From Geitlerinema sp. BBD 1991-9 (GTDB lineage Bacteria; Cyanobacteriota; Cyanobacteriia; Cyanobacteriales; Geitlerinemataceae), in NCBI GenBank assembly GCA_001657325.1, contig LWRO01000008.1, forward strand, positions 1 through 64,000: a stretch of DNA of 64,000 bases. Direction: 5' to 3'. Positions 3,969-28,755 of this stretch are shown in pieces (positions within the stretch are counted from its first letter, which is position 1; the number at the start of each line of letters is the position of its first letter). The notes below the pieces were generated by a model. That model saw only the letters and a program-made list of their open reading frames with translations, had not been told where the DNA came from and did not search any database. A program made the translations under genes and the position numbers.

Positions 3969-6377
3969 CTAATACGGCCACTTCCAGTGAACGATCTCGT
4001 CTTTGTCGATGCCGATCTCGAAGGCGTAGTTCAGGTTTTCGATGATTTGGTTGGTCATGCGTTCCTTCACGTAGGCGGCGGCGGAACCGAGTTGGGGAAC
4101 TCGATCGATGACATCGATGACGAGATTGAATCGATCGACCTGGTTGCGAATGGCCAACTCTAACGGCGTGTTGATGTTGCCTTCTTCCTTGTAACCGCGC
4201 ACGTGAATTCGCTCTTGGTTGGTGCGGCGGTAGGTGAGTTTGTGAATCAACCAGGGGTAGCCGTGGAAGTTGAAGATGACGGGTTTGTCTGGCGTAAAGA
4301 GGGTGTTGAAATCTCGATCGGATAAACCGTGGGGGTGTTCGCTCTCCGGTTGCAGCTTGAACAAGTCCACCACGTTGATAAACCGCACTTTCAACTCGGG
4401 GAATTCTTCCCGCAGAATCGCCGTCGCTGCTAGAGATTCCATCGTGGGAATGTCACCACAGCAAGCCATCACCACGTCGGGGAAATCCGGTTCTTTCCCG
4501 CAGTCGTCGTTACTCGCCCATTCCCAGATGCCGATACCTTTAGTGCAGTGGGAGATCGCCTCCTCCATGCTCAGATACTGGAGGTGATTTTGTTTGTCTG
4601 CCACGATGACGTTGACGTAATCGGTACTCCGCAAGCAGTGATTCGTCACGGATAACAAGCAGTTGGCATCTGGCGGGAGATAAATCCGCGTGACTTCAGC
4701 GCTCTTGTTCGTCACTAAGTCGATAAAGCCAGGGTCTTGGTGGCTGAAGCCGTTGTGATCTTGCCGCCACACCAAGGACGATAGCAGGATATTTAACGAT
4801 GAAACAGGCGCGCGCCAGGGAACATCGTGTTTGCAGATGTCCAACCATTTAGCGTGTTGGTTGAACATAGAATCAATGACATGAGCGAAGGCTTCGTAAG
4901 TGTGGAACAAGCCGTGTCGTCCAGTGAGCAGATAGCCTTCGAGCCAACCTTCGAGGGTGTGTTCGCTGAGCATTTCCATGACCCGCCCATCGGGAGACAG
5001 GAGGCTCCCGTCGGCATCTTCGGGTAGGATCTCCGCCATCCAAGCTTTTTGGGTGACTTCGTAGATGGCACTCAGACGGTTAGAAGCGGTTTCGTCGGGT
5101 CCGAACACCCGGAAGTTCGTCATGTTATTCCGCATGACATCTCGCAGAAACTGACCCATAATGCGGGTGTTTTCCACTTCAACCTGTCCCGGTGTTTGCA
5201 CGTCAACGGCATAGTCGCGGAAGTCGGGCAACCGCAGCTCTTTCCGTACTAAACCGCCGTTGGTGACGGGGTTGGCACTCATGCGGCGATGGCCTTCGGG
5301 GGCTAAGGCTTTGAGTTCGGGAATCAGCGTTCCGTTTTCGTCGAAGAGTTCTTCGGGTTTGTAACTCTTCATCCAATCTTCAAGGAGTTTCAGGTTCTCG
5401 GGGTTTTTATGAACGTCTGCCATGGGAACCTGGTGCGCCCGCCAAAATCCTTCGACTTTGTGGCCGTTGACTTCTCCTGGCCCCGTCCAGCCTTTGGGGG
5501 TGCGGAAGACTATCATCGGCCAGCGAGGACGGGTGGGCGTGCCACTTTGACGGGCTTCTTGCTGGATGCGGCGAATTTCGAGGACGCACTCTTCTAAGGT
5601 CGCCGCCATGGTTTGGTGCATGACCTCGGGATCGCTGCCTTCGACGAAGTAGGGGGTGTAGCCGTAGCCTCGGAAAAGTGCGTCGAGTTCTTCGTGGGAA
5701 ATCCGCGAGAGAAGCGTCGGGTTGGCGATTTTATAACCGTTGAGGTGCAGGATGGGAAGCACTGCGCCGTCGCGGATGGGGTTGAGGTATTTATTGGAGT
5801 GCCACGCGGTAGCCAGGGGCCCGGTTTCGGCTTCACCGTCTCCGACAACGGCGGTAACGATGAGGTCGGGACTGTCATAAGCGGCTCCGAAGGCGTGGGA
5901 TAGGCTGTAGCCGAGTTCGCCGCCTTCGTGGACGGAACCGGGGGTTTCGGGGGTGACGTGGCTGCCGATGTGTCCGGGGAAGGAAAATTGTTTGAAGAAT
6001 TTCTGCATCCCCTCCTCGTCTTCGCTTTTGTCGGGATAGATTTCGGAGTAGGTGCTTTCGAGGTAGGCGGGCCCGAGAACACCCGGTGCGCCGTGGCCGG
6101 GGCCTGCGATGTAGATGGTGCTGAGGTCGTATTTTTTAATGAGGCGGTTGAGGTGGATGTAGATAAAGCTCAAACCTGGACTCGATCCCCAGTGGCCGAG
6201 GAGACGCTTTTTAACGTGTTCGGCTTGGAGGGGTTCTTTGAGGAGGGGATTGTCTTTGAGATAAATCATGCCGACAGCCAGGTAGTTGGCTGCACGCCAG
6301 TAGGCATGAATTTTTTGGAGTTCTTCAGGGGTGAGAGGTGTTGCGCTTTCGGGAGGTTTGATGGGTGTTGCAGTCAT
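3969..6377 (-). CDS. xfp: Phosphoketolase (xylulose-5-P / fructose-6-P)
   Basis: The enzyme cleaves xylulose-5-phosphate and/or fructose-6-phosphate with inorganic phosphate to acetyl-phosphate plus glyceraldehyde-3-phosphate or erythrose-4-phosphate, using thiamine diphosphate. The 802-aa protein matches the family length. It shows the signature GPGHG (92-96) and the ThDP motif [14 protein letters not shown] (179-192). Another start 66 bp upstream is possible, but the ATG at 6377 gives the normal N-terminus [15 protein letters not shown], whereas the extension ([15 protein letters not shown]) looks non-homologous. The 528-bp gap upstream is shared with the divergent glgX. Its product acetyl-phosphate is the substrate of AckA at 12038-13255. 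Confidence 0.96.
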
Positions 6378-6905
6378 AACTCTCTTCAACTCTCTAGTGA
6401 TGTCTCGTATCGATCGACTCAATTCGATCGACCCATAGAACAAAGCGTCGATCGACTGTTTTTTTCTCGATCGATTTCATACAATCAGATGCTTTATAAT
6501 TCGATGACGATGGCTGAGATCTGTGAAATCGTTGTCTGAATTTTACGCGATCGAATCTATTCAGAACTTTAGGAAAACGTTAATTTTTACAAAAAGGAAG
6601 TACGCTAATCGTTTGCTCTATTCGGTCAATGCACGGGAATTCAAAGCAGTCCAGAGGAAATCCAAACTGTTTTCACGATTTTTTCACACGATTTGCGCGG
6701 GATCGAAACCGTAAATTTTATCGATCTAGTGTTACTTTATGTTGCGCGTTTTTTAATCCTTTAGTTTAACCAAAATTTAACGAAGATTCAAAATCATCGA
6801 TATTTGGTTTGCCCGTATAATAGCGATGTTTCTAAAAAACAGCAATAGCAACGAACCACGTCTATAAGTTGCATTGTCAGACCCGTTGGAGTCGAACGAG
6901 ATGCG
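6378..6905. promoter_or_regulatory. Divergent promoter region between xfp and glgX
   Basis: This gap separates two divergently transcribed carbon-metabolism genes and holds no credible gene. A consensus -10 box TATAAT is at 6816-6821, 84 bp before the glgX start. No good -35 box sits at 17 bp. The region is AT-rich, and no operator was recognised. Confidence 0.45.
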
Positions 6906-8984
6906 ATGAATTCAAAGGTTTTGCCCGGTCACAGTTTTCCGCTGGGAGCGACTGTGTCACCCCACGGAACCAACTTCGCCGTGTTTTCCAAATATGCGGA
7001 AGCGGTGACGCTGTTGCTGTTCGATCGAGCGGACGATCCCAAGCCGTCGCGGATGATTCCCCTAGACCCGCAACGTCACAAAACCTCCCACTACTGGCAC
7101 GCTTTCGTTTCCGGTATCGGTTCCGGGCAACTTTACGGCTATCGCGTCCTCGGTTCCAACCGTCCCGAACAGGGTCTGCGTTTCGACAGTGCCAAGGTTC
7201 TCCTCGATCCCTACGCCAAAGCCGTCGTTACCGATACCTACGATCGAGCGGCGGCCATCCGACCGGGGGATAATTGTCCCACCGCCCTCAAAGGTGTCGT
7301 CGTCGATACGAGTCGCTACGATTGGGAAGGCGATCGATCGCCCAAAACACCTTACGCCAGCACGGTCATCTACGAACTGCACGTCGGTGGCTTTACCCGT
7401 CATCCGAGTTCTGGCATCGCGCCCGAAAAGCGGGGGACGTTTGCGGGTTTGGTCGAAAAAATTCCCTATCTTCAAGAATTGGGCGTGACTGCAGTCGAAC
7501 TGCTTCCCGTCCAGCAATTCGACGAAGCCGACGCACCCGACGAGTTTACAAACTATTGGGGATACAGCCCGATTGCCTTTTTTGCCCCTCACAGCGGTTA
7601 TAGTTCCCGTAAAGATGCTCTCGGTTCGATCGACGAGTTTCGCGACATGGTGAAAGCCTTGCATCAAGCGGGAATCGAGGTCATTCTCGATGTCGTGTTC
7701 AACCACACCGCCGAGGGAAACGAATACGGGCCGACCCTGTCCTACCGAGGACTCGCCAACGAAACCTACTACATCCTCGACGACAACCGTGCCAAGTACC
7801 GCAATTACAGCGGGTGCGGCAATACGTTTAAAAGCCATCACGCTGTCGTCGGTCGTTTGATTCTTGAATGCTTGCGCTATTGGGTGTCTGAAATGCACGT
7901 CGATGGCTTTCGCTTCGATTTGGCTTCCGTTCTCGCCCGAGATCACCACGGAAAACCCTTGAAAGACCCACCGATTTTGTGGGCGATCGAATCCGATCCC
8001 ATCCTCGCCGGGACGAAATTGATCGCGGAAGCTTGGGACGCGGCCGGATTGTACCAGGTGGGATCGTTCATTGGCGATCGATTTGCCGAATGGAACGGGC
8101 CGTTTCGCGATGACGTGCGGCGTTTTGTGAAAAGCGATCGAAACACCGTTCCCAAGTTGGCAGCCAGACTGTTAGGCAGTCCCGACATTTACAAACAACC
8201 CGTTCGCGAAGCGTCTCCAAAGGAGAATCGCGACCTCAACCGCAGTATTAATTTCATTACCTGCCACGACGGTTTTACCCTCAACGATTTAGTGTCCTAC
8301 AACCACAAGCACAACCTCGCCAACGGTGAAGATAACTGCGACGGGTCGAACGACAACTACAGTTGGAACGGCGGAATTGAAGGAGAAACTGACGATCCCA
8401 CCATTCTGGCGTTACGTCTCAAACAAGCTAAAAACTTGATGACTGTTTTGTTGATGTCCCAGGGAACGCCCATGTTATTGATGGGGGATGAAGTGCGTCG
8501 ATCGCAAGGGGGGAACAACAACGCTTACTGTCAAGATAACGAGTTGAGTTGGTTCGATTGGCGATTGGTCGATCGAAATGCCGATATGTTGCGGTTTACG
8601 CGGGAACTGGTTCGTTTTATTCAAACCCGCCAAATTTTTCAGGTCGAAGATTTTTTATCGATCGGAACGGATTCAATCCATCCGAGTTTACGCTGGCATG
8701 GCGTTTGTTTGGGAGAACCCGATTGGAGTGGCGACTCGCACACCCTCGCCTTTAGTTTGCGTTATCCCAAAGCCGATGAATTTCTCTACATCGCGTTCAA
8801 TATGTATTGGAAACCTCTCGATTTCGAGTTGCCGTCGTTACGCAATGTTCAACAGTGGCATCGCATCGTCGATACCGCGTTAGCGTTTCCCAACGACGTG
8901 TCACCGGTGGAAACCGCATCTCCTGTGGAGGGAAATTATTATGCTTTAGCCGATCGATCGAGTGTCGTTCTTTATGCCAAATAA
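6906..8984 (+). CDS. glgX: Glycogen debranching enzyme (isoamylase type, GH13)
   Basis: GlgX hydrolyses alpha-1,6 branch points of phosphorylase-trimmed glycogen. The 692-aa protein has an N-terminal carbohydrate-binding module (about 8-130, starting GHSFPLGATV) followed by the GH13 barrel. All four GH13 regions are visible: DVVFNH (262-267), DGFRFD with nucleophile Asp338, EAWD with acid/base Glu375, and CHDGF with Asp455. The ATG at 6906 is preceded by an out-of-frame ATG at 6901. The position of the carbohydrate-binding domain supports this start. It lies divergent from phosphoketolase and upstream of pyruvate kinase, fitting a glycogen-breakdown role. Confidence 0.95.
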   Translation: MNSKVLPGHSFPLGATVSPHGTNFAVFSKYAEAVTLLLFDRADDPKPSRMIPLDPQRHKTSHYWHAFVSGIGSGQLYGYRVLGSNRPEQGLRFDSAKVLLDPYAKAVVTDTYDRAAAIRPGDNCPTALKGVVVDTSRYDWEGDRSPKTPYASTVIYELHVGGFTRHPSSGIAPEKRGTFAGLVEKIPYLQELGVTAVELLPVQQFDEADAPDEFTNYWGYSPIAFFAPHSGYSSRKDALGSIDEFRDMVKALHQAGIEVILDVVFNHTAEGNEYGPTLSYRGLANETYYILDDNRAKYRNYSGCGNTFKSHHAVVGRLILECLRYWVSEMHVDGFRFDLASVLARDHHGKPLKDPPILWAIESDPILAGTKLIAEAWDAAGLYQVGSFIGDRFAEWNGPFRDDVRRFVKSDRNTVPKLAARLLGSPDIYKQPVREASPKENRDLNRSINFITCHDGFTLNDLVSYNHKHNLANGEDNCDGSNDNYSWNGGIEGETDDPTILALRLKQAKNLMTVLLMSQGTPMLLMGDEVRRSQGGNNNAYCQDNELSWFDWRLVDRNADMLRFTRELVRFIQTRQIFQVEDFLSIGTDSIHPSLRWHGVCLGEPDWSGDSHTLAFSLRYPKADEFLYIAFNMYWKPLDFELPSLRNVQQWHRIVDTALAFPNDVSPVETASPVEGNYYALADRSSVVLYAK

Positions 8985-13255: not shown

Positions 13256-13576
13256 AGAAATCGATGGTTATTTCACGCCAAGCGATTGAGCAATCTCGAA
13301 GCAATTCATTTTAAGGTTAGGGGAACGGTACAGACTGTGATGTCTGAAACCATGCCATGTTCTGGATGGAGTCATGACTCCGTCTACAGTACAATGTAGA
13401 GTTTTGCTGACCTGAAACTCGGGTTATTTTCGCAATTTGGCGTTGAACTGACCTCGAAACAACACGCCTAAGAACAACGCGCCTAAGATCGATCTAACTT
13501 TCCTCAGTTTCACGCACCGTTTTTTGGGCAGTACGAACCATGTATCGCCTTAAAACGGTCATACCGAGTGCAGACG
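13256..13576. other. Intergenic region between ackA and the CRISPR array
   Basis: No gene is seen. It contains the perfect 14-bp palindrome GGAGTCATGACTCC at about 13360 and a 15-bp tandem duplication (AACAACACGCCTAAG and AACAACGCGCCTAAG) at about 13458-13488. No terminator with a T-run for ackA was found. This is the leader-distal flank of the array. Confidence 0.6.
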
Positions 13577-13612
13577 GTCTAAATCCGATAAGGGATTTTA
13601 TCGAATTTAGAC
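13577..13612. repeat. Degenerate leader-distal CRISPR repeat, near-palindromic
   Basis: Bases 13598-13612 match the normal 3' part of the repeat with one change (TTATCGAATTTAGAC). The 5' half does not begin GTTTCAATCCC. Instead it is GTCTAAATCCGATAA, the exact reverse complement of the normal repeat 3' end. The result is a 15-bp stem with one mismatch around the loop GGGATT. Confidence 0.9.
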
Positions 13613-16600
13613 TCTCCTGCACCACAGTAGGGGTGGAACACTGTTGAGCGTTTCAATCCCTAAAAGGGATTTTATCGGATTTAGACTCTGCGATGTCCGC
13701 CCACGGCATTCGCGTAGGAATCTCGTTTCAATCCCTAAAAGGGATTTTATCGGATTTAGACGCGGACTTTGTGAAGATCTCGATAAAGAGATTCTTCGAA
13801 AAAGTTTCAATCCCTAAAAGGGATTTTATCGGATTTAGACATCGAGCGCATACCGTCGAGCTGCTCGCCCTCTTCGTTTCAATCCCTAAAAGGGATTTTA
13901 TCGGATTTAGACGGGGGATTTCAGGCAAGAGATGTTTTCAAATTCTTGGTTTAGTTTCAATCCCTAAAAGGGATTTTATCGGATTTAGACAAGAAGTGCT
14001 CGCTCAAGAGAGCGATATAGCGCTGTTTCAATCCCTAAAAGGGATTTTATCGGATTTAGACTTTCTACATTGGGAGCGATCCAGAAAACCCAGTTTCAAT
14101 CCCTAAAAGGGATTTTATCGGATTTAGACCCTCATACCTTAGCTGGAAATCGTTAGTCACCGCCGTCCGAGTTTCAATCCCTAAAAGGGATTTTATCGGA
14201 TTTAGACCCAACGCCCCGGAAACCGTACGCGGTGCGATCGGTTTCAATCCCTAAAAGGGATTTTATCGGATTTAGACTTCACTTTAGGGGAAGAGGGTTT
14301 AACATCACCTAGATTGTTTCAATCCCTAAAAGGGATTTTATCGGATTTAGACCTGTCGGCGGTTTTCGGGGATGCCGTTTTTAAGAGTTTCAATCCCTAA
14401 AAGGGATTTTATCGGATTTAGACTGACCAATTTAACGCCCTCGAGAGTGAAGCGTTGTTTCAATCCCTAAAAGGGATTTTATCGGATTTAGACCACCGCC
14501 CGGCGGGGCGCAAACACAGCAACTCCTTCGTTTCAATCCCTAAAAGGGATTTTATCGGATTTAGACGGTAACAAATCAGGGCGGTGTCGAGGCGGGATTC
14601 AAGTTTCAATCCCTAAAAGGGATTTTATCGGATTTAGACAAGATCGACCCCCCGACGATGAGGAGTCCGCCGATCGCACCGTTTCAATCCCTAAAAGGGA
14701 TTTTATCGGATTTAGACGTTCGCCCCTGGCACTTGTTGCGATCGGGCTGTTCTCAAAGTTTCAATCCCTAAAAGGGATTTTATCGGATTTAGACGCCTTA
14801 TCGAACGCGGTTTCGATCGGCGGAAGCGTTGCCGTTTCAATCCCTAAAAGGGATTTTATCGGATTTAGACTTGATGATGGCATCTATTCGGAGAAAGCTG
14901 AAAGGTTTCAATCCCTAAAAGGGATTTTATCGGATTTAGACTGGCGATCGCTCCCACCGAGTCAATTAGGACAGTTTCAATCCCTAAAAGGGATTTTATC
15001 GGATTTAGACCTGTAACAGTGTAAAGTCCGTTGAAGCCATAAAAAGTTTCAATCCCTAAAAGGGATTTTATCGGATTTAGACTTAAGGGATTTCGGAGAG
15101 CAATTGTTTGCTACTACGTCGTTTCAATCCCTAAAAGGGATTTTATCGGATTTAGACGTCGGGTGTTGTTGACTCCGATTCAATAACATTGGTTTCAATC
15201 CCTAAAAGGGATTTTATCGGATTTAGACCTACCTTCCTCAAGATTAGAGTCTTCATTTTCCATGTTTCAATCCCTAAAAGGGATTTTATCGGATTTAGAC
15301 AAGATTTATGGAGAAGGGTATAGAATCTTGATTAGTTTCAATCCCTAAAAGGGATTTTATCGGATTTAGACAGTTTCAGGGCAAATTAATATTAATATTC
15401 TACATGTTTCAATCCCTAAAAGGGATTTTATCGGATTTAGACACTGAATAAAGCTAAAGCTAGTATCAAAGAGGCAGAGTTTCAATCCCTAAAAGGGATT
15501 TTATCGGATTTAGACAATTTCTCTTCTGATAAACCTTGTCTAGATCCATACTCCAAGTTTCAATCCCTAAAAGGGATTTTATCGGATTTAGACAGTGGAA
15601 AAGCAAGTTCCGGGGACAATGGATCTCGGTTTCAATCCCTAAAAGGGATTTTATCGGATTTAGACGATCCGGTTATAGCTTTTTTAGCCTGTTTAGCATC
15701 GGTTTCAATCCCTAAAAGGGATTTTATCGGATTTAGACCTACGACTACCTCTGTTAAAGCGTCGATATCATCATCATTGTTTCAATCCCTAAAAGGGATT
15801 TTATCGGATTTAGACGAGGGGTTTCCGAAAATCGAATTTCTAGGGTTTGAAGTTTCAATCCCTAAAAGGGATTTTATCGGATTTAGACATATTTGGCAAA
15901 AGGGCAACAATGTAATCGATTTAGTTTCAATCCCTAAAAGGGATTTTATCGGATTTAGACAATGGGTGAATTTTCCCATTTTAGAGATGCAATCTAAGTT
16001 TCAATCCCTAAAAGGGATTTTATCGGATTTAGACCTAGGGCTTTGCAAAAGCCCTCATTCTCTTGTAGGTAGTTTCAATCCCTAAAAGGGATTTTATCGG
16101 ATTTAGACTTTATTCGGCTTCCTTCGTAGGAAATGTAGTTTGCCCCGTTTCAATCCCTAAAAGGGATTTTATCGGATTTAGACGATTTGTAAAGCTAGTT
16201 GTCCCGAAATTAGTGCCAGTTTCAATCCCTAAAAGGGATTTTATCGGATTTAGACGAATTTTAAAGGTAGTAGGCTCCAATGAAATCACGTTTCAATCCC
16301 TAAAAGGGATTTTATCGGATTTAGACAAATCCCCTCTTGAGAAGCATAATTTAGAATTTTGTTTCAATCCCTAAAAGGGATTTTATCGGATTTAGACGAG
16401 GTAGCACAGCCAGGCGAGCGGCGTCGAGTTGGGATGCCGTGTTTCAATCCCTAAAAGGGATTTTATCGGATTTAGACGCTTCCCAACTGTCGATCGTCAA
16501 ACTCGAACAGTTGGTTTCAATCCCTAAAAGGGATTTTATCGGATTTAGACCTCTAGCAAAGATACTACTCCACTCGAGAAGGAAGTGTTTCAATCCCTAA

Positions 16601-19307
16601 AAGGGATTTTATCGGATTTAGACTCCTCAAAGGATTCCCCCTCCACTTCTTTCCTAGGTTTCAATCCCTAAAAGGGATTTTATCGGATTTAGACGTAATT
16701 CTTGCTCAATTGCGGGTTGGAGCAATCGGTTTCAATCCCTAAAAGGGATTTTATCGGATTTAGACTCTTCTATTAGGCAGCCGTGATCCTTTCCGCAGAT
16801 AGGTTTCAATCCCTAAAAGGGATTTTATCGGATTTAGACTATCTGAAATTGAGCAAGGTATTTCCAGACTTAGAGCTAGTTTCAATCCCTAAAAGGGATT
16901 TTATCGGATTTAGACTAGAGGCACTAGAGGCTGAAAAAGCATTAGATAATCGTTTCAATCCCTAAAAGGGATTTTATCGGATTTAGACTCCTCCGCGATC
17001 AATTGAGCAATTTCCCCATTCGAGTTTCAATCCCTAAAAGGGATTTTATCGGATTTAGACCGTAGTTGTTTGGGGGAAAGAGTCCTACCAGTGGAGTTTC
17101 AATCCCTAAAAGGGATTTTATCGGATTTAGACCTTCGAAGAGTATCCCCCTTTCTTAAGGGATACCCTTTTGGGTTTCAATCCCTAAAAGGGATTTTATC
17201 GGATTTAGACTCAAATGTTACTTTAAGTGCAATTCCAACATATGGGTTTCAATCCCTAAAAGGGATTTTATCGGATTTAGACCTGGTGTACCCTCTGATA
17301 CACCAGGAAGTGGGAGCCTCTTCCTAGGTTTCAATCCCTAAAAGGGATTTTATCGGATTTAGACTTATTGCCCTGTCTATAGACATTAGGTACTACGCTG
17401 TTTCAATCCCTAAAAGGGATTTTATCGGATTTAGACCTAGAGAATTGAGAAATTTTACGACATTTCCTTCTCTGTTTCAATCCCTAAAAGGGATTTTATC
17501 GGATTTAGACTACCCCCTTTGATTCGGAAAGACTCATTGTCTTTCGTTTCAATCCCTAAAAGGGATTTTATCGGATTTAGACATAGTTATATTGGTAGCT
17601 GTAGTCACTTATGCCATGTTTCAATCCCTAAAAGGGATTTTATCGGATTTAGACCGTACCCAATACTAGTAATAATATGGCTAGGCAAAGTTTCAATCCC
17701 TAAAAGGGATTTTATCGGATTTAGACCTAATTTTTTGTCCTCTTCCGGCCAACTTGGTGGTGTAAGTTTCAATCCCTAAAAGGGATTTTATCGGATTTAG
17801 ACTTCGCCAGAATAAAAATGATGATTACGGTCGTATCCTGTTTCAATCCCTAAAAGGGATTTTATCGGATTTAGACTCGTCAATGTAGACGACATTACCT
17901 CCGTATTAGAGTTTCAATCCCTAAAAGGGATTTTATCGGATTTAGACTCTATGGGTGTTGGCGCAAATGGTGCTTTAATTTTCTCCGTTTCAATCCCTAA
18001 AAGGGATTTTATCGGATTTAGACTAGATTCTTGCCTAGTCAGTACACAAATATAGTCTACGGTTTCAATCCCTAAAAGGGATTTTATCGGATTTAGACGA
18101 TTTGTGATTATATGTGATGTCCTCTTATAGAAGTTTCAATCCCTAAAAGGGATTTTATCGGATTTAGACACCTTAGATAAGTTAGGATCTTCTCAGTTCC
18201 CTCGTTTCAATCCCTAAAAGGGATTTTATCGGATTTAGACTGTCGAACACCTTATCTTCTCCCTCCCCGCCGTTGCGGTTTCAATCCCTAAAAGGGATTT
18301 TATCGGATTTAGACGATATAAGTCTGACTGTCTACCCAGTAGACACAGCAGTTTCAATCCCTAAAAGGGATTTTATCGGATTTAGACTTGAAGCAGTGGA
18401 AATGGACGTGTACACGGCTAGTTTCAATCCCTAAAAGGGATTTTATCGGATTTAGACTTTATGGATCATCTATATATCCTGGAAGGCAATCATGTTTCAA
18501 TCCCTAAAAGGGATTTTATCGGATTTAGACGTCCATCTATTTGCGGCTATAAAGGAGGTGCGGACGAGTTTCAATCCCTAAAAGGGATTTTATCGGATTT
18601 AGACTCGAGGTGGTATTTGAAGGTAGATACAGGTACTCCATGTTTCAATCCCTAAAAGGGATTTTATCGGATTTAGACTCTCCTCTTGATAAGAGGGAGA
18701 ATGGAGTCATTCTGTTTCAATCCCTAAAAGGGATTTTATCGGATTTAGACAGCCCCTTAAAATAATGTTTTTTAATAAAATCATGATGTCAGTTTCAATC
18801 CCTAAAAGGGATTTTATCGGATTTAGACTAGGATCTGTCTCAATCTCTTTTGTAGACTCCACTAGTTTCAATCCCTAAAAGGGATTTTATCGGATTTAGA
18901 CGCAACAGCCACGGGTAGGCTTGCACGTCCGTTTAACAAGTTTCAATCCCTAAAAGGGATTTTATCGGATTTAGACCAGGAAATAAGTCCGAATTAGAAT
19001 TGATACAGGAGCGTTTCAATCCCTAAAAGGGATTTTATCGGATTTAGACGACCTACTGATGTTTTGGCAACAGAGGATGGCACGATGTTTCAATCCCTAA
19101 AAGGGATTTTATCGGATTTAGACGCACCATACTTAGATCGTATTCAAATCTTTGGGTACTTGGTTTCAATCCCTAAAAGGGATTTTATCGGATTTAGACA
19201 GTGTAGATTACACTGAAAATGGTGCAAATACCGCCAGTTTCAATCCCTAAAAGGGATTTTATCGGATTTAGACTTTGTACTTGAAATTCAAACCTTTTTC
19301 CTCACTG

Positions 19308-19335
19308 GTTTCAATCCCTAAAAGGGGATTTAGAC
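19308..19335 (-). repeat. CRISPR repeat with 9-nt internal deletion, copy 1
   Basis: The repeat lacks ATTTTATCG, giving a GGGGATTTAGAC end. The deletion lies between two GGATTT direct repeats of the normal unit, so simple slippage explains it. The spacer before it, 19274-19307, recurs at 21037-21070. Confidence 0.95.
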
Positions 19336-21070
19336 TTGATAAGAAGAAGAAGTCGGATCCTGTGATTGAAGTTTCAATCCCTAAAAGGGATTTTATCGGA
19401 TTTAGACCGGTTTTACTACGGATAAGCTGATAGGAGAGTTTAGTTTCAATCCCTAAAAGGGATTTTATCGGATTTAGACCACGGGGTGAAATACCCCGAT
19501 GAGATGTAGTTTGAATGGTTTCAATCCCTAAAAGGGATTTTATCGGATTTAGACTCGTATGAACTACGGAGCAACGAGGATGTCTACGAATGGTTTCAAT
19601 CCCTAAAAGGGATTTTATCGGATTTAGACTTTAGGATCAATCCTTGTATTAGATAATACATTTTTTGTTTCAATCCCTAAAAGGGATTTTATCGGATTTA
19701 GACTCGGGGGTAACGACTTTTTTGCAACGAGTGACGCCGTAGGTTTCAATCCCTAAAAGGGATTTTATCGGATTTAGACCCTATAGAAATTTAATTTCTG
19801 TTTAACATGGATGTGTTTCAATCCCTAAAAGGGATTTTATCGGATTTAGACAGGGAGGGTAATATTTTATATGAGAGGTTGGGCTGTGTTTCAATCCCTA
19901 AAAGGGATTTTATCGGATTTAGACTTCATTTGGGTAGCTAAATTCTTTTGTAAGCTCTTTAGTTTCAATCCCTAAAAGGGATTTTATCGGATTTAGACAA
20001 ACCCCTTTATCAACGTGCAAATAATAATGTTTTGTTTCAATCCCTAAAAGGGATTTTATCGGATTTAGACATAATAGTAAAGATAGGTGATAGTTCCCCT
20101 AATGGAGTTTCAATCCCTAAAAGGGATTTTATCGGATTTAGACTCGGAAACTGGAGAATTATCTTAGCCTTTATAACTCTGTTTCAATCCCTAAAAGGGA
20201 TTTTATCGGATTTAGACGGGATTCTTTAATGATTCCGGACATTACCAGAAAGTTTCAATCCCTAAAAGGGATTTTATCGGATTTAGACGGTAATATCTAA
20301 ATTAGAATTGATTAATTCCTCTAGTTTCAATCCCTAAAAGGGATTTTATCGGATTTAGACTGTTGCCGCTTGGTGGCTGGGGCGTAAGAGCGGACAGTTT
20401 CAATCCCTAAAAGGGATTTTATCGGATTTAGACACTGCGACGCCAAACCGGCCGCCACGTCAGACTCGGTTTCAATCCCTAAAAGGGATTTTATCGGATT
20501 TAGACCGAGGTTTGCGCCGCAGTGCGAGATCTACGAAAGCTGCAACCTGTTTCAATCCCTAAAAGGGATTTTATCGGATTTAGACACGCCACAAATCCGG
20601 CGTTCGTCCGAGCAACGATTTTTGAAGTTTCAATCCCTAAAAGGGATTTTATCGGATTTAGACCCCTACGCTGTTACAACAATGCGGTGGAGGAGATGGT
20701 TTCAATCCCTAAAAGGGATTTTATCGGATTTAGACCCTAAAGTGTAGTTAGTATTATAAAAGCGTTTCGACGTTTCAATCCCTAAAAGGGATTTTATCGG
20801 ATTTAGACGCGGTGTTTGGCAGTCGCCACGAACGATCGCCCGTCTGCTAATTCGTTTCAATCCCTAAAAGGGATTTTATCGGATTTAGACAACAGATGAG
20901 GCTTTTAATCAAAGAGAACTACCATGTTTCAATCCCTAAAAGGGATTTTATCGGATTTAGACGAGCTGAATTCTTTGGATTTGAATGTGGCATTAAGGAG
21001 TTTCAATCCCTAAAAGGGATTTTATCGGATTTAGACTTTGTACTTGAAATTCAAACCTTTTTCCTCACTG

Positions 21071-21098
21071 GTTTCAATCCCTAAAAGGGGATTTAGAC
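21071..21098 (-). repeat. CRISPR repeat with 9-nt internal deletion, copy 2
   Basis: It is identical to the shortened repeat at 19308-19335 and follows an identical 34-nt spacer. Neighbouring spacers on both sides differ between the two places. Confidence 0.95.
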
Positions 21099-24000
21099 GC
21101 GGCGCGGGCGGAAGTGAATCTATCTGCGTTCCAAGTTTCAATCCCTAAAAGGGATTTTATCGGATTTAGACGGGGCGTCTGCGGGAATTTCGCCCTACCC
21201 GCACTGAAGAAGTTTCAATCCCTAAAAGGGATTTTATCGGATTTAGACAGCAGAGATAATCTCGTGGGCATTACAGATGGACAAAGTTTCAATCCCTAAA
21301 AGGGATTTTATCGGATTTAGACTCGATCTCGAGGATGATAGCGGCGACGAAGCCGTTTCAATCCCTAAAAGGGATTTTATCGGATTTAGACCACAATTGT
21401 TTTTGTCAGAGTAGTCCCCGAATTGATGTTTCAATCCCTAAAAGGGATTTTATCGGATTTAGACTTTCTGTTACTAAGATTGCCCTTCAGCAACGGGGAG
21501 TTTCAATCCCTAAAAGGGATTTTATCGGATTTAGACAATTCTTTTTCCAATATTATCATTTTGATACTGCTGTTGTTTCAATCCCTAAAAGGGATTTTAT
21601 CGGATTTAGACTAAAGTTAAGTTCTCTTTTTTCTTACCAATACTGAGTTTCAATCCCTAAAAGGGATTTTATCGGATTTAGACCTGATATAGAAACAGCT
21701 AGACGGCAACTGTTACTAATAATCACTAGATCGTTTCAATCCCTAAAAGGGATTTTATCGGATTTAGACGCGATTCCGATGTCTCCGAGTCGCTCGAAGA
21801 ACTGTTTCAATCCCTAAAAGGGATTTTATCGGATTTAGACGTTCTTCAATTTAATTTCTGTTTTACAGGGATTAGTTTCAATCCCTAAAAGGGATTTTAT
21901 CGGATTTAGACGGGTGTTGGCGCAAACGGTGCTTTAATTTTCTCCGTTTCAATCCCTAAAAGGGATTTTATCGGATTTAGACTCAAAAAAAATATTTACC
22001 TCTACAACGATTTGAGGTTTCAATCCCTAAAAGGGATTTTATCGGATTTAGACAAAAAATTTCGTGGGTGCGATTCAGTCCGCGTATGGTTTCAATCCCT
22101 AAAAGGGATTTTATCGGATTTAGACTAGATTCAGCCAGCACTTTATCCTGGCTACGTTGACGCGTATGGTTTCAATCCCTAAAAGGGATTTTATCGGATT
22201 TAGACTTATTTTTTTCGTCTAGCTTACTTAGCGTACCTAGTTTCAATCCCTAAAAGGGATTTTATCGGATTTAGACAAGACAAAATAGTTGAATTACAGT
22301 CCCTTTTGGCATCTCGTTTCAATCCCTAAAAGGGATTTTATCGGATTTAGACCCTTCTTCGGCGTAAACCACTGTCCCCGAATGCGTCGCGTTTCAATCC
22401 CTAAAAGGGATTTTATCGGATTTAGACATGAAGAGTACGCTGAAACTCTTCGGTACGTCTTCGTTTCAATCCCTAAAAGGGATTTTATCGGATTTAGACG
22501 AGGGAATAGAGCGACTTGGGAAGAGGTTGCTCAAGTACGTCTTCGTTTCAATCCCTAAAAGGGATTTTATCGGATTTAGACGACATTTGTTCCTTGGTGA
22601 AGCTTTCCTTCCGCTTGGTTTCAATCCCTAAAAGGGATTTTATCGGATTTAGACTCGTATGAACTACGGAGTGGGGTGGACGTCTACCAGTGGTTTCAAT
22701 CCCTAAAAGGGATTTTATCGGATTTAGACTTTAGATAAGGATCTACGTCCCGTTAAACCAGAAGTTTCAATCCCTAAAAGGGATTTTATCGGATTTAGAC
22801 GTTCTATCACATTTAGAGGCAAACTCTGACTGTGTTAGTTTCAATCCCTAAAAGGGATTTTATCGGATTTAGACGGGAGCGACCTACAAGCTGGGATGTG
22901 TTACTATTACCAGTTTCAATCCCTAAAAGGGATTTTATCGGATTTAGACAGTATGAACTAGGCGTTTCCCTTCCTGGTTGTAGATCTTCAGATCTACGTT
23001 TCAATCCCTAAAAGGGATTTTATCGGATTTAGACATCTCTCTACTTTACTCGGGTTAAATTGTTCCGCTATGTTTCAATCCCTAAAAGGGATTTTATCGG
23101 ATTTAGACGAGAAGGGTTTGGGTCGTTAAAGGTATATTGTAGATACAGGTTTCAATCCCTAAAAGGGATTTTATCGGATTTAGACCAGGCACTTTCTTTT
23201 CCCTCCGTGTTATTATAAAGTTTCAATCCCTAAAAGGGATTTTATCGGATTTAGACCCTAAAACCCTTGTCCCGTTTAATTCCTGTAAGTTTCAATCCCT
23301 AAAAGGGATTTTATCGGATTTAGACTTGAATGCTGTGCCTTTTTGGCGACGCTCAAGGGTTTCAATCCCTAAAAGGGATTTTATCGGATTTAGACTTAAA
23401 AAAGGAGGATACTCTGAGAAGTATGGATTTGTTTCAATCCCTAAAAGGGATTTTATCGGATTTAGACATATTTTATATGAGAGGTTGGGCTGCAACTATA
23501 GGTTTCAATCCCTAAAAGGGATTTTATCGGATTTAGACGGTATATAAGTCTCTATGGTCATGTTAGAGGCCTCTATAAGGTTTCAATCCCTAAAAGGGAT
23601 TTTATCGGATTTAGACCTGAGGGCGTAAATTCTTCTTGACCATTTAAACCTGTTTCAATCCCTAAAAGGGATTTTATCGGATTTAGACAAGGGTAGTGAC
23701 GAGTCCGTTAAGATTAAAGATCTTGTTTCAATCCCTAAAAGGGATTTTATCGGATTTAGACTTTGATTCCCGAAGCGATCGCGAACCATCAACAGTTTCA
23801 ATCCCTAAAAGGGATTTTATCGGATTTAGACTTCATCTCAGCACCCCTCGTCCACAGCAACATGCGTTTCAATCCCTAAAAGGGATTTTATCGGATTTAG
23901 ACTTTAAGGTAGTTCTACCTTGGGGAAATGACAATATGCTGTTTCAATCCCTAAAAGGGATTTTATCGGATTTAGACTCAAATCCGGTCTGTGGCTCGTC

Positions 24001-25724
24001 CAGCGTGATGATGGTTTCAATCCCTAAAAGGGATTTTATCGGATTTAGACATAATTTACTTAACAGATTTAGTACTTTTTTCTGTTTCAATCCCTAAAAG
24101 GGATTTTATCGGATTTAGACATTTTATTTGCATAGTTGAAGGCTGGAATAAAGAGTTTCAATCCCTAAAAGGGATTTTATCGGATTTAGACGAGGATCGC
24201 TTGGGCGATCGTCACCGAGGCCGGGTTTCAATCCCTAAAAGGGATTTTATCGGATTTAGACTTGAGTTTGGTGAACAGACGATTGACCCGTCATTGTTTC
24301 AATCCCTAAAAGGGATTTTATCGGATTTAGACGAAATAATATAGTTATCATGTTATCACATAAAAATGTTTCAATCCCTAAAAGGGATTTTATCGGATTT
24401 AGACTCTCCTTCTCTAATTCAATTAAAATCATCTCAGCTAGGTTTCAATCCCTAAAAGGGATTTTATCGGATTTAGACTGGTCGCGATGCTCGTAGTCGA
24501 CTGCGATCGCGTTTCAATCCCTAAAAGGGATTTTATCGGATTTAGACGAGCCGCTATCTAAGGGATGAAAGAGGTATAAGCCCTGTTTCAATCCCTAAAA
24601 GGGATTTTATCGGATTTAGACCCGTCATCCAGTGGATCGCATCTAATCTCGATTGGTTTCAATCCCTAAAAGGGATTTTATCGGATTTAGACTATAAAAA
24701 CTACATGATCCGTGAAGCACACTATAAAGGTTTCAATCCCTAAAAGGGATTTTATCGGATTTAGACCACTAATTTAATCATTGACATATTTAATAGTTCC
24801 ATCGTTTCAATCCCTAAAAGGGATTTTATCGGATTTAGACCAGGCAAATTACTAAGGGATAAAGGTTTAATATTGGTTTCAATCCCTAAAAGGGATTTTA
24901 TCGGATTTAGACAAAATCATTTATATAGGTGATATCCTTTACATCACCGTTTCAATCCCTAAAAGGGATTTTATCGGATTTAGACGATCGGGGCTGTTGA
25001 CTCTGCCAACAAATGATCCGTTCGTTTCAATCCCTAAAAGGGATTTTATCGGATTTAGACAGGGCTAAAAGATTGCGACGATATCGATCTTCTACGTTTC
25101 AATCCCTAAAAGGGATTTTATCGGATTTAGACTCGCGGACGATCCCTATCGATGTTTGACTGTTGAAGGTTTTTATGTTTCAATCCCTAAAAGGGATTTT
25201 ATCGGATTTAGACCAGATCCCGATGGCGTAATTGCATCTTATCTAGATCCGGTTTCAATCCCTAAAAGGGATTTTATCGGATTTAGACTGGATAGTAGGC
25301 TCGAAATCCGTGTACTATGGCTTCCGTTTCAATCCCTAAAAGGGATTTTATCGGATTTAGACATGAAGATGTTATCACCCCAGGTGAACAGGAACCTGGT
25401 TTCAATCCCTAAAAGGGATTTTATCGGATTTAGACAGGATTTTAAGTCCTCCCTATTAAATAATGTCAATGTTTCAATCCCTAAAAGGGATTTTATCGGA
25501 TTTAGACCGGTGGAGTGCTACTATATCGGGGTATAAAGCGCCCACGTTTCAATCCCTAAAAGGGATTTTATCGGATTTAGACCCTCAATCTTTGGTGCTT
25601 CTCAATTAAGCTTCGAGTTTCAATCCCTAAAAGGGATTTTATCGGATTTAGACAGTTATTCACTCACTTCAATGACACAAAGGAAAGGTTTCAATCCCTA
25701 AAAGGGATTTTATCGGATTTAGAC

Positions 25725-26077
25725 CGCCCAGCTCTGAAAGCTTGTCTCTATGAAGTTTTCAAGGTGCAGTTGCGCGGATCTCCTTGACAATAGCATCGAT
25801 CGAGCAAAAAACACAAATCTCACTCACTCGATAAATCTCGCAAACCCTTGCCCTACAAGCTTTTCAGGATTTGCGCGGATCGCCATTCAAGCGAGATCGC
25901 CTCAAATCGAGACACTATCAGCTATCCAGCCCATTTTTGGCCAACGCTCGCTCGAACACCCACCCTTCCGCGCAAAATGCAACACCACTCCAGCGATCGA
26001 CGAGCAAACGTGACGGAAAACGAGATCGATCCCCAGCCAAAAACCAAGCATCGGACTCGATTTTTCCCCCTCGAAGC
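25725..26077 (-). promoter_or_regulatory. Predicted CRISPR leader
   Basis: This 353-bp gene-free stretch lies between the last perfect repeat and the stop of the Csx3-AAA gene. It contains two related segments about 100 bp apart, 25753-25783 and 25857-25884, each with AAG(T/C)TTTCA followed by TTGCGCGGATC. Repeat polarity predicts transcription leftwards into the array from here. No clear -35/-10 pair was identified. Confidence 0.7.
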
Positions 26078-26992
26078 TCAACCGCCAGCCACGCGCACGA
26101 TCGAATCGAGTAAAACCTGGGGGACGACGGCTTCTCGCTCTCGTTCCCACGGCCCGACGATCGATTCCAAATACGGCGACGTTCTCAACACCTCACAGCA
26201 AGTTTCTCGAACGCTGTGAATCACCGCCAGCGGCTGTAAGTCGCGACATAAACCCTGCCACGCTTCAACTTTATCGGGATGGTTGCTAATAATAATGTAA
26301 TGACTACACGATCGAACCACGGGCAATTTCACCTCGTCAGGAACGCCTCCCACATCGACCAACGTTAAATCGGTCACTTGACGAATATTCTGAGTGTCCG
26401 TGGCCCGTTCTTGAAAATAGGCGTTCAGCACGTCATCCGCATTCGGCAAATCGGGAATTTTATACTTGTTCTTTTGTTTCAACCGAGCCACGACATCTCG
26501 ATGTGGACTTTCATAGATGTAGTTGCCTTCACCATCCCAGTTGGCCCGATGTAAGTAAACTTGCAAATCCGGACGCGATCGCATTACCGCCACCCGCAAC
26601 GCATTCGACAACACGCTTTTACCGCTGTTGGGAGGCCCGCCTATCAAAATAGCAGTCCCCGGATCGCGATTGAGGAAAATCGGAAAACTATCTCCTGGCG
26701 CAATCGATCGATCTCGACTGCGAACGACAACGACAGATTTCGATCGAAGATCGAAAAACCCCACCCAAGGCGCATCGGACAACCGACACAAGGCGTGATT
26801 GTAAAACCAGTTGGGAGCGTTGCCATATAGAACCACCCCCCGACTCAAATCGAGATCGTCGGGAATCTGCCACGACAGCATCGCTTCAGGCGATATCAAC
26901 GCTTTCAACGGCCGCGTATCGATCGCAATCGCTTGATAATCGCGACTACTGCCTTTCAGGTGAATCACCTGGGATCGAACATCCGGTTCCAT
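26078..26992 (-). CDS. csx3: Csx3-AAA fusion (CRISPR ancillary ring-nuclease-like protein)
   Basis: The 304-aa protein joins a Csx3-like domain (about 1-98) to a P-loop ATPase-like domain. The first part has VVLYGNAPNWFYNHAL and WVGFFDLRSKSVVVVRSR, matching the Csx3 pattern with Asp81 and Arg83. The second part has Walker A GGPPNSGKS (118-126, Lys125) and a possible Walker B LTLVDVGG (Asp213). Csx3/Crn3 enzymes degrade the cyclic tetra-adenylate made by type III CRISPR complexes, and fusions to AAA-type domains are known in cyanobacteria. The role of the ATPase part is unclear. It is 3 bp from the stand-alone csx3, so both are surely one operon. The operon points towards the CRISPR leader. 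Confidence 0.85.
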   Translation of the reverse strand: MEPDVRSQVIHLKGSSRDYQAIAIDTRPLKALISPEAMLSWQIPDDLDLSRGVVLYGNAPNWFYNHALCRLSDAPWVGFFDLRSKSVVVVRSRDRSIAPGDSFPIFLNRDPGTAILIGGPPNSGKSVLSNALRVAVMRSRPDLQVYLHRANWDGEGNYIYESPHRDVVARLKQKNKYKIPDLPNADDVLNAYFQERATDTQNIRQVTDLTLVDVGGVPDEVKLPVVRSCSHYIIISNHPDKVEAWQGLCRDLQPLAVIHSVRETCCEVLRTSPYLESIVGPWEREREAVVPQVLLDSIVRVAGG

Positions 26993-26995
26993 CGA

Positions 26996-27334
26996 TTACC
27001 CCTTTCCCAATTCCGGCAACTCAACATCGAGAACTTGACTGACTTTGACCTGATGAGTGTGACTGGAAACCACCACAACCCCCAATCGGGGATCGTAGCA
27101 ACCCACCCAAGCCGCCGGGTGGCACTCGTGAATCAAGTAGCCGTACAGCCAAATGGGGGCTTTCCCTTCAATGGCAATTCCCTGTTTCCAATCGATTCCC
27201 TGGGGAAGCTGTAGCCCTTTCAAATCAGCTGGTGTAATAATGCCGTCTTCAGTGGCGATGCGGACGTGCAAGTGTTGGTACGGCACATTATCGCGGCTTT
27301 GGTGAGAAACGAGTCGCAGTTGAATCGCAGTCAT
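26996..27334 (-). CDS. csx3: Csx3 (Crn3) ring nuclease, stand-alone
   Basis: This 112-aa protein has normal Csx3 length and the core IAIEGKAPIWLYGYLIHECH followed by WVGCYDPRLGVVVVSSHTH. Asp81, Arg83, His69 and the later histidines of SSHTH are candidate active-site residues. Stand-alone Csx3 works as a tetramer that cleaves cyclic tetra-adenylate, switching off type III signalling. The frame is open 74 codons further upstream, but the ATG at 27334 fits homologue length, and the extension would overlap the start of the divergent regulator gene. The gap to that regulator is 80 bp, so the two promoters are intertwined. Confidence 0.88.
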   Translation of the reverse strand: MTAIQLRLVSHQSRDNVPYQHLHVRIATEDGIITPADLKGLQLPQGIDWKQGIAIEGKAPIWLYGYLIHECHPAAWVGCYDPRLGVVVVSSHTHQVKVSQVLDVELPELGKG

Positions 27335-27414
27335 GGCGGTCTTCAAAAATCGATCGCTTGTATTGTACGCTGTGGGTGGAAGTGGCGACTTCCAACCCGA
27401 AACGCTCAGCGGTG

Positions 27415-28755
27415 ATGTCGGAGTTAACGTTTCAATTTCCCCCCCATCCGTCTCTATTGCAGGGATTAACGCGGGGTGCTTTGGCTCAACACCTGCTTCG
27501 ATCGATCCGCCTGTGGGTCGAATTGTCTTGGCTGTACAGTCCCCAAAGTGCCTCACTACCCAACGGATTTACGTATGCTCAGTGGCGAGATGCCTTTTTC
27601 CACCACACTCATCCGAAAGGGGAAGCGATTCCACCGTTACACGATCGAGCCTGCGCCTGTGCGAAAACGGCCGCCGATTGGCTACAACCTTGGCTGAACG
27701 AGGATTGGCAACAGATACTGTGTCGTCAGGCGGGATTGGATGACAAACAGGTGTCAGTCGCGTTACAACGGCGGTTGTTTGGCGTGACGCGGCGATCGAT
27801 GGCCGACGATTTTCGCTTGCTCGTCGAGTTAGGTTGGTTACAGCGGTGCGGTCGAACCTTCGATCGCGTGTCGGTGTTTCCCGTTGTAGACATTCGAGCG
27901 GAAGCCGAAGCTGAAATCCAAGCGGAACGAGACGACACGCCCTTGGCGTTTGTCAATCTCGATTTGGGTACGCTCGCCCAACAGTTCGCAACGCCGATCG
28001 CCGGAGTGCAGCGGTTTTTCTTCGAGGTCGACTACATCGTGCGAGATCGCAATATCGATCGCGTCGAAGACTGGCAAGTGCAACTCCAACAACTCTGGAG
28101 TCGTACTGTTATCCCTCCCGTGCGACTTCACTACAACAGCGCAAAATTGGGGGCGTCGGTGCGCTGTGTCGTTTATCCCGTCTGCTGTTATTACGTACGT
28201 CGGGCGATTTATTTGTGCGGTTTCGGACAAACGCCAAGCGGTGACGGACAGTGGTATAACTTTCGACTCGATCGCGTGCGGGATTTACAGTCGATCGAGT
28301 GGGACGACGAATCCGTTCCTCTCTTTTTGCAACAAGCATATCGCAAGAAAAACTTACCCACCCCCCAAGACATTCGGCAGCAGATGGAAGCAGCATGGGG
28401 GTTCGATTTTTATTTGAAAACCGCCGTGATGGTGCTGCGGTTCGATCGAGCGTTTCACGACAGCTACGTGGCGGGAACCTTCCGTCACGAAACCTTTGAG
28501 CCAGTCAGTTATACCGAAGTCGGAAAGCTCGTTCGCCACTGTGCCGAACCGCCTTATCGCGAGCGGTTGTTGGCGGTACTCCAAGCTCGATCGTCTGAAG
28601 ATGCCTATTACCGCTCGATCGTGCGTCAGGGCGATACAAACGTGCGGATGCGGTTGCGAGCTTGGCGGCCGTTCGGAGAAGTATTGTTACCTTGGGGAAT
28701 GCGCCAGGAGATGGCAACAGAGGTGAAACAGGAGTACGATTTGTATGATTTGTGA
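27415..28755 (+). CDS. WYL-domain CRISPR-associated regulator (TIGR03985-like)
   Basis: The 446-aa protein resembles the cyanobacterial TIGR03985 family found in CRISPR loci. The N-terminal part (about 5-150) is helical with a winged-helix-like segment around RRSMADDFRLLVELGWLQRCG. The middle (about 230-300) has the WYL pattern: PPVRLHYNSAKL, YPVCCYYVRRAIYLCGFGQ, then WYNFRLDRVRDLQSIEW. WYL proteins are usually transcription regulators that sense nucleic-acid or nucleotide ligands. The ATG at 27415 (MSELTFQFPPHP) is preferred over one 19 codons upstream, which would overlap the promoter of csx3. Divergent placement suggests it regulates csx3 and perhaps the array. The ligand is unknown. Confidence 0.75.
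   Translation: MSELTFQFPPHPSLLQGLTRGALAQHLLRSIRLWVELSWLYSPQSASLPNGFTYAQWRDAFFHHTHPKGEAIPPLHDRACACAKTAADWLQPWLNEDWQQILCRQAGLDDKQVSVALQRRLFGVTRRSMADDFRLLVELGWLQRCGRTFDRVSVFPVVDIRAEAEAEIQAERDDTPLAFVNLDLGTLAQQFATPIAGVQRFFFEVDYIVRDRNIDRVEDWQVQLQQLWSRTVIPPVRLHYNSAKLGASVRCVVYPVCCYYVRRAIYLCGFGQTPSGDGQWYNFRLDRVRDLQSIEWDDESVPLFLQQAYRKKNLPTPQDIRQQMEAAWGFDFYLKTAVMVLRFDRAFHDSYVAGTFRHETFEPVSYTEVGKLVRHCAEPPYRERLLAVLQARSSEDAYYRSIVRQGDTNVRMRLRAWRPFGEVLLPWGMRQEMATEVKQEYDLYDL

What the first reader, a model, noticed from the sequence alone, without database searches (positions are those of the whole stretch)
22054..22544. Two CRISPR spacers that carry the first 8 or 10 nt of the next older spacer: footprint of mis-placed integrase cuts
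Spacer 22126-22168 is 43 nt and ends (plus strand) in the same CGCGTATG as its leader-distal neighbour 22054-22088 (35 nt). Spacer 22500-22544 is 45 nt and ends in the same GTACGTCTTC as its neighbour 22428-22462 (35 nt). In both cases the longer spacer is the leader-proximal one, the shared bases abut the leader-side repeat, and the excess over 35 nt equals the shared length exactly (8 and 10). That is what results if the spacer-side nick falls 8 or 10 nt inside the older spacer, so repeat plus those bases are duplicated. A shared 8-mer end has a chance of about 1 in 65,000 per neighbour pair, a 10-mer about 1 in a million. It also independently confirms leader polarity. Seven other spacers of 43 nt or more do not show this.
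Basis: partly seen in the sequence, partly recalled or inferred. Interest (0 to 1): 0.85.

Follow-up and report, generated by a model that had tools for sequence, protein, structure and literature searches.

The report
CRISPR spacers inserted one turn off
Two over-long CRISPR spacers in this cyanobacterium carry the first 8 or 10 letters of their older neighbour, most likely because the spacer-inserting enzyme made its second cut about one DNA helix turn too far; the same slip recurs in many cyanobacteria, so CRISPR arrays keep a readable record of the enzyme's natural errors.

Summary
The window holds a 164-repeat type I-D array with its leader on the right; elsewhere in the genome the same leader adjoins a complete I-D operon with cas1, cas2 and cas4. 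Spacers 22126-22168 (43 nt) and 22500-22544 (45 nt) are 35 nt of new sequence plus the first 8 or 10 nt of the next older spacer.

In 5,663 neighbour pairs from 228 related arrays, 13 pairs share 7-28 leader-side nt and leave a remainder of 33-36 nt. Two weak look-alikes occur among about 42,000 non-neighbour pairs, and none with the longer spacer on the distal side. A fourteenth lies in array C80 of this genome. Nine of 14 overshoot by 10-11 nt, about one helical turn.

A viral ribonucleotide reductase gene matches the 45-nt spacer 22/22 up to the predicted 35-nt boundary and 3/10 beyond it.

Related slips: three insertions with both cuts moved 10 or 20-23 nt, and one repeat cut 9 nt short whose altered end was copied by all later acquisitions.

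Aberrant second-site cuts are known from mutant type II-A repeats; I found no report of such scars in natural arrays.

The parts
13576..25724 (-). Type I-D CRISPR array, 164 repeats of 37 nt (crRNA sense on the minus strand, repeat GTCTAAATCCGATAAAATCCCTTTTAGGGATTGAAAC)
25725..25884 (-). Leader, conserved beside arrays C58 and C80 of the same genome and in relatives
13576..13612 (-). Degenerate terminal repeat (oldest end)
22054..22088 (-). Older spacer A, 35 nt, starts CATACGCG in crRNA sense
22081..22088 (-). 8 nt of older spacer A that were duplicated (original copy)
22089..22125 (-). Repeat between older spacer A and chimeric spacer A
22126..22160 (-). Newly inserted 35 nt of chimeric spacer A
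   Evidence: no protospacer found
22161..22168 (-). Second copy of the 8 nt of older spacer A, abutting the leader-side repeat
22169..22205 (-). Leader-side repeat of chimeric spacer A
22428..22462 (-). Older spacer B, 35 nt, starts GAAGACGTAC in crRNA sense
22453..22462 (-). 10 nt of older spacer B that were duplicated (original copy)
22463..22499 (-). Repeat between older spacer B and chimeric spacer B
22500..22534 (-). Newly inserted 35 nt of chimeric spacer B; homologous to a viral class II ribonucleotide reductase gene
22535..22544 (-). Second copy of the 10 nt of older spacer B; no homology to the viral gene (3/10)
22545..22581 (-). Leader-side repeat of chimeric spacer B

Best explanation
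These are scars of mis-placed second-site integration by the type I-D Cas1-Cas2(-Cas4) integrase. Normally the non-PAM end of a roughly 35-nt prespacer joins the leader-repeat border and the PAM end joins the other strand 37 nt further on, at the repeat-spacer border, so that gap repair duplicates only the repeat. In these two events the first joint was correct, but the second fell 45 or 47 nt from the leader border, so repair duplicated the repeat plus the first 8 or 10 nt of the older spacer. Across 14 cases the overshoot is 7-12 nt in 13 (nine at 10-11) and 28 in one, which fits an integrase that meets the same face of the DNA one helical turn later. Shown: the structure, its recurrence, polarity, adjacency, equal excess, and for one spacer the protospacer boundary. 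Inferred: the enzyme, the order of the joints, the helical-turn cause, and that such spacers are inactive because their seed bases come from another target.
For: Exact equal-excess signature in the window. 13 such neighbour pairs in 5,663 against 2 weak ones in about 42,000 non-neighbour pairs, 13 to 0 in the predicted direction, and one more in C80. All remainders are 33-36 nt, mean 34.8, SD 0.8, although ordinary spacers average 36.0 with SD 2.7; 35 nt is the commonest length in type I-D acquisition experiments (PMC10212523). Viral homology of the 45-nt spacer is 22/22 up to the boundary and 3/10 beyond; viral relatives code R-V-V where the spacer reads V-R-L. Overshoots cluster at 10-11 nt (9 of 13 within 7-13; P about 0.003 against uniform); the idea was noted after six cases and six of the eight found later fell at 10-11. 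Whole-site shifts of 10 and 20-23 nt and a 9-nt undershoot are errors of similar step. The same leader adjoins I-D cas1, cas2 and cas4 in C58. Joints 8 nt into the spacer with partial spacer duplication were seen experimentally in type II-A with mutated repeats (PMC6895254).
Against: Only one protospacer homologue was found, with 28/35 identity, and it is not the source virus; its flank at the boundary (CCT) is not a GTN PAM. The 43-nt spacer has no match. No strain with the empty site was found. Displacements of 7, 8 and 28 do not fit a strict one-turn rule. Two neighbour pairs share distal ends instead (G2C4 array position 13749; L316 position 1564) and are unexplained.
Confidence: 0.92

Rival explanations
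1. The long spacers are ordinary long prespacers whose ends match the neighbour by chance or because both spacers come from related sequence.
For: Spacers of 43 nt or more do occur without any sharing (177 spacers of 43 nt or more in the set). Some spacers in these arrays do come from homologous targets and share leader-side ends.
Against: Expected 0.008 pairs with 10 or more shared letters, against nine class-consistent cases at 10-11; sharing is confined to immediate neighbours; the longer spacer is always leader-proximal; homologous pairs have scattered mismatches and normal lengths; viral homology stops at the boundary.
Confidence: 0.02
2. Replication slippage or recombination between repeats made the chimeras, without the integrase.
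For: Array copying by recombination does happen here: one spacer with a 28-nt repeat occurs twice (19274 and 21037), whole blocks are duplicated in G007, and in L151 16 nt of a spacer were copied into the next repeat.
Against: Slippage gives whole-unit copies or losses. It does not insert 33-36 nt of unrelated sequence exactly between the duplicated end and the next repeat, always on the leader side. No microhomology lies at the junctions, except in C80, where the new sequence happens to start with TGTGCTAT.
Confidence: 0.04
3. The second joint is mis-placed, but because of local sequence (a G/C or repeat-end-like motif in the older spacer), not because of DNA helical phase.
For: G or C is the last duplicated base in 13 of 14 (P = 0.00025); weak resemblance to TTGAAAC before the cut (P = 0.044). 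In type II-A the aberrant site is a guanine 8 nt into the spacer (PMC6895254).
Against: Sequence choice alone does not predict the peak at 10-11 (P about 0.003 against uniform 7-13) nor whole-site shifts of 10 and 20-23 nt at a nearly constant 37-40 nt spacing. Both causes may act together.
Confidence: 0.3

Closest known systems
Aberrant second-site integration in Streptococcus thermophilus type II-A (Kim et al. 2019, PMC6895254)
   Same: Second joint inside the first spacer, about 8 nt past the repeat-spacer border, giving partial duplication of the spacer; first joint correct; cut distance set by a ruler.
   Different: There it needed mutated repeats and was not seen with wild type. Here it is in natural arrays of another subtype, with a peak at 10-11 nt. 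The type II-A ruler is anchored inside the repeat, while C80 and L302 suggest a distance kept from the leader-side cut.
Type I-D adaptation of Synechocystis (Cas1, Cas2, Cas4; reviewed in PMC10212523)
   Same: Same adaptation genes, leader-first model, 35-nt modal spacer, variable spacer length.
   Different: The review's adaptation section describes one-nucleotide slipping in PAM cleavage, not mis-placed second joints with spacer duplication.
Ectopic spacer acquisition in S. thermophilus CRISPR1/CRISPR3 (PMC5338259, PMC7999890; titles and abstracts only read)
   Same: Integration at a wrong place in the array.
   Different: There the new spacer sits within the array rather than at the leader end; here the event is at the leader end with a shifted cut.

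Membership tests
Type I-D CRISPR array | Shares its leader with an array beside a type I-D cas operon (Cas10d, Csc1, Csc2, Cas6d, Cas4, Cas1, Cas2) | tested here: met
   Leader 80% identical in C58; operon genes identified
Type I-D CRISPR array | Own cas genes next to the array | tested here: not met
   No cas1 in the window; nearest genes beyond the leader are csx3-like. The array is presumably served in trans
Type I-D CRISPR array | Modal spacer length 35 nt | tested here: met
   35 nt commonest in this array and in 5,879 related spacers
Type I-D CRISPR array | GTN PAM at the leader-side end | tested here: inconclusive
   The only viral homologue is not the source; its flank is CCT
Second-site mis-integration scar | Leader-side end of the older spacer duplicated, excess length equal to the duplicated length | tested here: met
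   Window pairs 8+35 and 10+35
Second-site mis-integration scar | Only neighbours, and the longer spacer leader-proximal | tested here: met
   13 against 2 weak non-neighbour pairs; direction 13 to 0
Second-site mis-integration scar | Protospacer homology stops at the 35-nt boundary | tested here: met
   Spacer 22500-22544 only: 22/22 then 3/10
Second-site mis-integration scar | Dependence on Cas1-Cas2 | not testable with these tools
   Needs an integration assay

The most novel reading that the evidence does not exclude
The type I-D integrase of cyanobacteria keeps about 37 nt from the leader-side cut by DNA geometry rather than by reading the repeat end, so its natural errors come in steps of about one helical turn (second cut +10/11, or both cuts +10 or +20). 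When a short cut trims the repeat, 37 nt are measured again and the array's repeat is rewritten for all later spacers, as in C80, where 9 nt of a spacer became the repeat end in 13 later acquisitions. CRISPR arrays would then be a fossil record of integrase geometry.
Probability: 0.5. Interest if true: 0.8.

Novelty: new variant of a known kind. Interest (0 to 1): 0.64.

Why it matters
What sets the second cut of spacer integration has been studied mainly with mutated repeats in a few model systems. Natural arrays turn out to hold thousands of finished reactions, so precision (about 1 detectable overshoot in 400 acquisitions here), geometry and the anchor of the ruler can be read from genomes for any subtype. 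The scars also prove leader polarity, explain some over-long spacers, and mean that the first bases of such spacers should be trimmed before protospacer searches. In a type I system such a spacer should be a dud, since its seed comes from another target.

Tried and rejected
Chance and same-source spacers were rejected by the controls at distances 2-10. First wide scans gave hundreds of false sharings from wrong repeat boundaries and from the palindromic repeat core; fixed by anchoring on the GAAAC end with a fixed 37-nt repeat. Three pairs that looked like exceptions (L179; L059 at 2930; G2C4 at 24507; shared 20, 10, 23 with normal lengths) turned out to have a shortened repeat between them and to be whole-site shifts. 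L302 is not such a shift but a repeat that lost its first 10 nt, followed by 37-nt duplications. L271 (14 shared, normal lengths) looks like homologous protospacers; L131 (7 shared, remainder 27) and L125 (6 shared) are within chance. Phage and plasmid record searches gave chance-level matches or none. Viral 17- to 18-mer matches for L306, L225 and older spacer B were chance-level. No empty site was found. Generality outside this repeat family was not tested. One later search returned short loci from the same genomes; I did not use them.

Full report
WHAT IS THERE. The window is the start of contig C89 of a 5.98-Mb draft genome; its CRISPR relatives are all cyanobacteria. From 13576 to 25724 it carries 164 repeats of 37 nt, all identical except the degenerate last one, plus two 28-nt shortened copies. 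In crRNA sense (minus strand) the repeat ends in ATTGAAAC. The 160 bp to the right of the array are conserved beside two other arrays of the same genome (C80, C58; 80-82% identity) and in relatives. In C58 this leader lies next to cas2, cas1, cas4 and a full type I-D effector set. The right side is therefore the leader, and newer spacers lie to the right. The window itself has no cas1, so the array is presumably served in trans.

THE OBSERVATION. In crRNA sense the newer spacers are CATACGCG + 35 nt and GAAGACGTAC + 35 nt; their older neighbours start with the same CATACGCG and GAAGACGTAC and diverge at the next base.

IS IT A RULE? I collected 228 related arrays (5,663 distinct neighbour pairs) from this genome, its relatives and named cyanobacteria and asked for shared leader-side ends. 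Background sharing falls off as expected by chance (0.47 pairs with at least 7 letters, 0.008 with at least 10). Thirteen neighbour pairs share 7-28 letters and leave a remainder of 33-36 nt. Among about 42,000 pairs two to ten places apart there are two, both with only 7 shared letters. In all thirteen the longer spacer is the leader-proximal one; the reverse was never seen. A fourteenth case is in the C80 array of the same genome. The displacements are 7, 8, 8, 10 (four times), 11 (five times), 12 and 28; the remainders are 33, 34 (three times), 35 (eight times) and 36 (twice). I had noted the 35-nt rule and the one-helical-turn idea after the first six cases. Of the eight found afterwards, six fell at 10-11 and all had remainders of 33-36. 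The cases come from many genomes, some on long contigs or finished chromosomes (for example Calothrix NIES-4101, L126), so assembly error is not a general explanation.

PROTOSPACER TEST. The 35-nt part of 22500-22544 matches three related viral contigs in a gene that Pfam recognises as a B12-dependent ribonucleotide reductase. The match is 22 of 22 on the boundary side, 28 of 35 overall, and 3 of 10 over the duplicated bases. In protein terms the spacer reads TWEEVAQ and then V-R-L, where seven of eight viral relatives read R-V-V. Homology thus ends where the model says. A 22-letter exact match has an expectation of roughly 0.01 in a collection of this size (my estimate), and the conserved reading frame adds weight, but the source virus itself was not found. 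No match was found for 22126-22168.

OTHER SLIPS OF THE SAME MACHINE. Three insertions duplicated the end of the repeat plus the start of the spacer: 17+20 nt (L179), 27+10 nt (L059) and 17+23 nt (array C4 of G002), with inserts of 34, 37 and 32 nt. Here both cuts moved by 10 or 20-23 nt while their distance stayed at 37, 37 and 40. In C80 one repeat lost its last 9 nt, which is what a second cut 9 nt too short would leave; the spacer beside it is then a normal 34 nt. The first acquisition after that overshot by 12, and 13 later ones each took exactly 37 nt again, so that all the newer repeats end in the same 9 nt of that old spacer. In L302 the leader-proximal repeat lacks its first 10 nt, and the next acquisitions took 27 nt of repeat plus 10 nt of spacer, again 37. 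Together these point to a distance kept from the leader-side cut, insensitive to loss of either repeat end. In type II-A the ruler is anchored inside the repeat (PMC6895254), so this would be a difference, but it rests on two natural cases.

MECHANISM. In type I-D the non-PAM end is proposed to join the leader border first and the PAM end the repeat-spacer border second, and acquired spacers are most often 35 nt (PMC10212523). That geometry places the duplicated bases between the leader-side repeat and the PAM end of the new spacer, as seen. In these arrays spacers against the same or related targets coincide at the leader-side end and vary at the other, which supports the PAM end being on the leader side. 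The last duplicated base is G or C in 13 of 14 against 45% in controls, so local sequence probably helps select the site within the favoured turn. A crRNA from such a spacer would carry 8-10 foreign seed bases and a displaced PAM, so I infer that it is inactive.

WHAT IS KNOWN. Kim et al. (2019) saw joints 8 nt inside the spacer, with partial duplication of the spacer, when the type II-A repeat was mutated, and not with the wild-type repeat. I found no report of such scars in natural arrays, or of a 10-11-nt peak, in the papers searchable here. Subscription journals were not searchable, including papers I recall on type I-E and I-B rulers. I therefore call it a new variant of a known kind of error.

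LIMITS. There is no experiment and no empty site; there is a single protospacer homologue; one repeat family was studied. The rate (14 in about 5,700) is a lower bound, because scars with fewer than 7 shared letters cannot be told from chance.

Noticed in passing
L070 (G000:C80) 6286-7385: The 15 leader-proximal repeats of array C80 end in ATTTATTAT instead of GATTGAAAC; 9 nt of one old spacer became the repeat end in all later units, which should destroy the crRNA handle and part of the repeat hairpin for about 14 spacers.
   Followed up: partly
window 19274-19370 and 21037-21134: The same spacer (TTTGTACTTGAAATTCAAACC...) followed by the same 28-nt repeat with a 9-nt internal deletion occurs twice, with different flanking spacers: block copying by recombination.
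   Followed up: no
window 22950-22997 and 17283-17327: Two other over-long spacers (48 and 45 nt) carry strong hairpins: GTAGATCT-TC-AGATCTAC at an end, and CTGGTGTA...TACACCAG at the other.
   Followed up: no
window 26078-27556: Two csx3-like genes (one Csx3-AAA, one Csx3) lie just beyond the leader.
   Followed up: no
window 13576-13612; L070 13590; G0C58 stitched array end: The terminal repeats of the three arrays are alike and nearly palindromic, and C89 and C80 share the sequence beyond them, suggesting array duplication from one ancestor.
   Followed up: no
G000 contigs C58, C7, C90, C97: Six cas1-like genes in one genome, two of them in long open frames (560 and 797 aa) that may be reverse transcriptase-Cas1 fusions.
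   Followed up: no
G2C4 array (L075) 13749-13845; L316 from 1564: Two neighbour pairs share 10 and 14 nt at the distal end instead; in the first the older spacer is only 25 nt. Not explained by the model.
   Followed up: partly
L151 from 2837 (+): 16 nt of a spacer start (GCGCAACACCTTTAAA) were copied into the following repeat after TTGAAAC, which occurs at both repeat ends: looks like template switching.
   Followed up: no
window spacers 21912/17948, 22655/19555, 21841/19780; C58 spacers 2/4 and 26/30: Spacers against the same or related targets coincide at the leader-side end and differ in length at the distal end, for example 35 versus 40 nt.
   Followed up: partly
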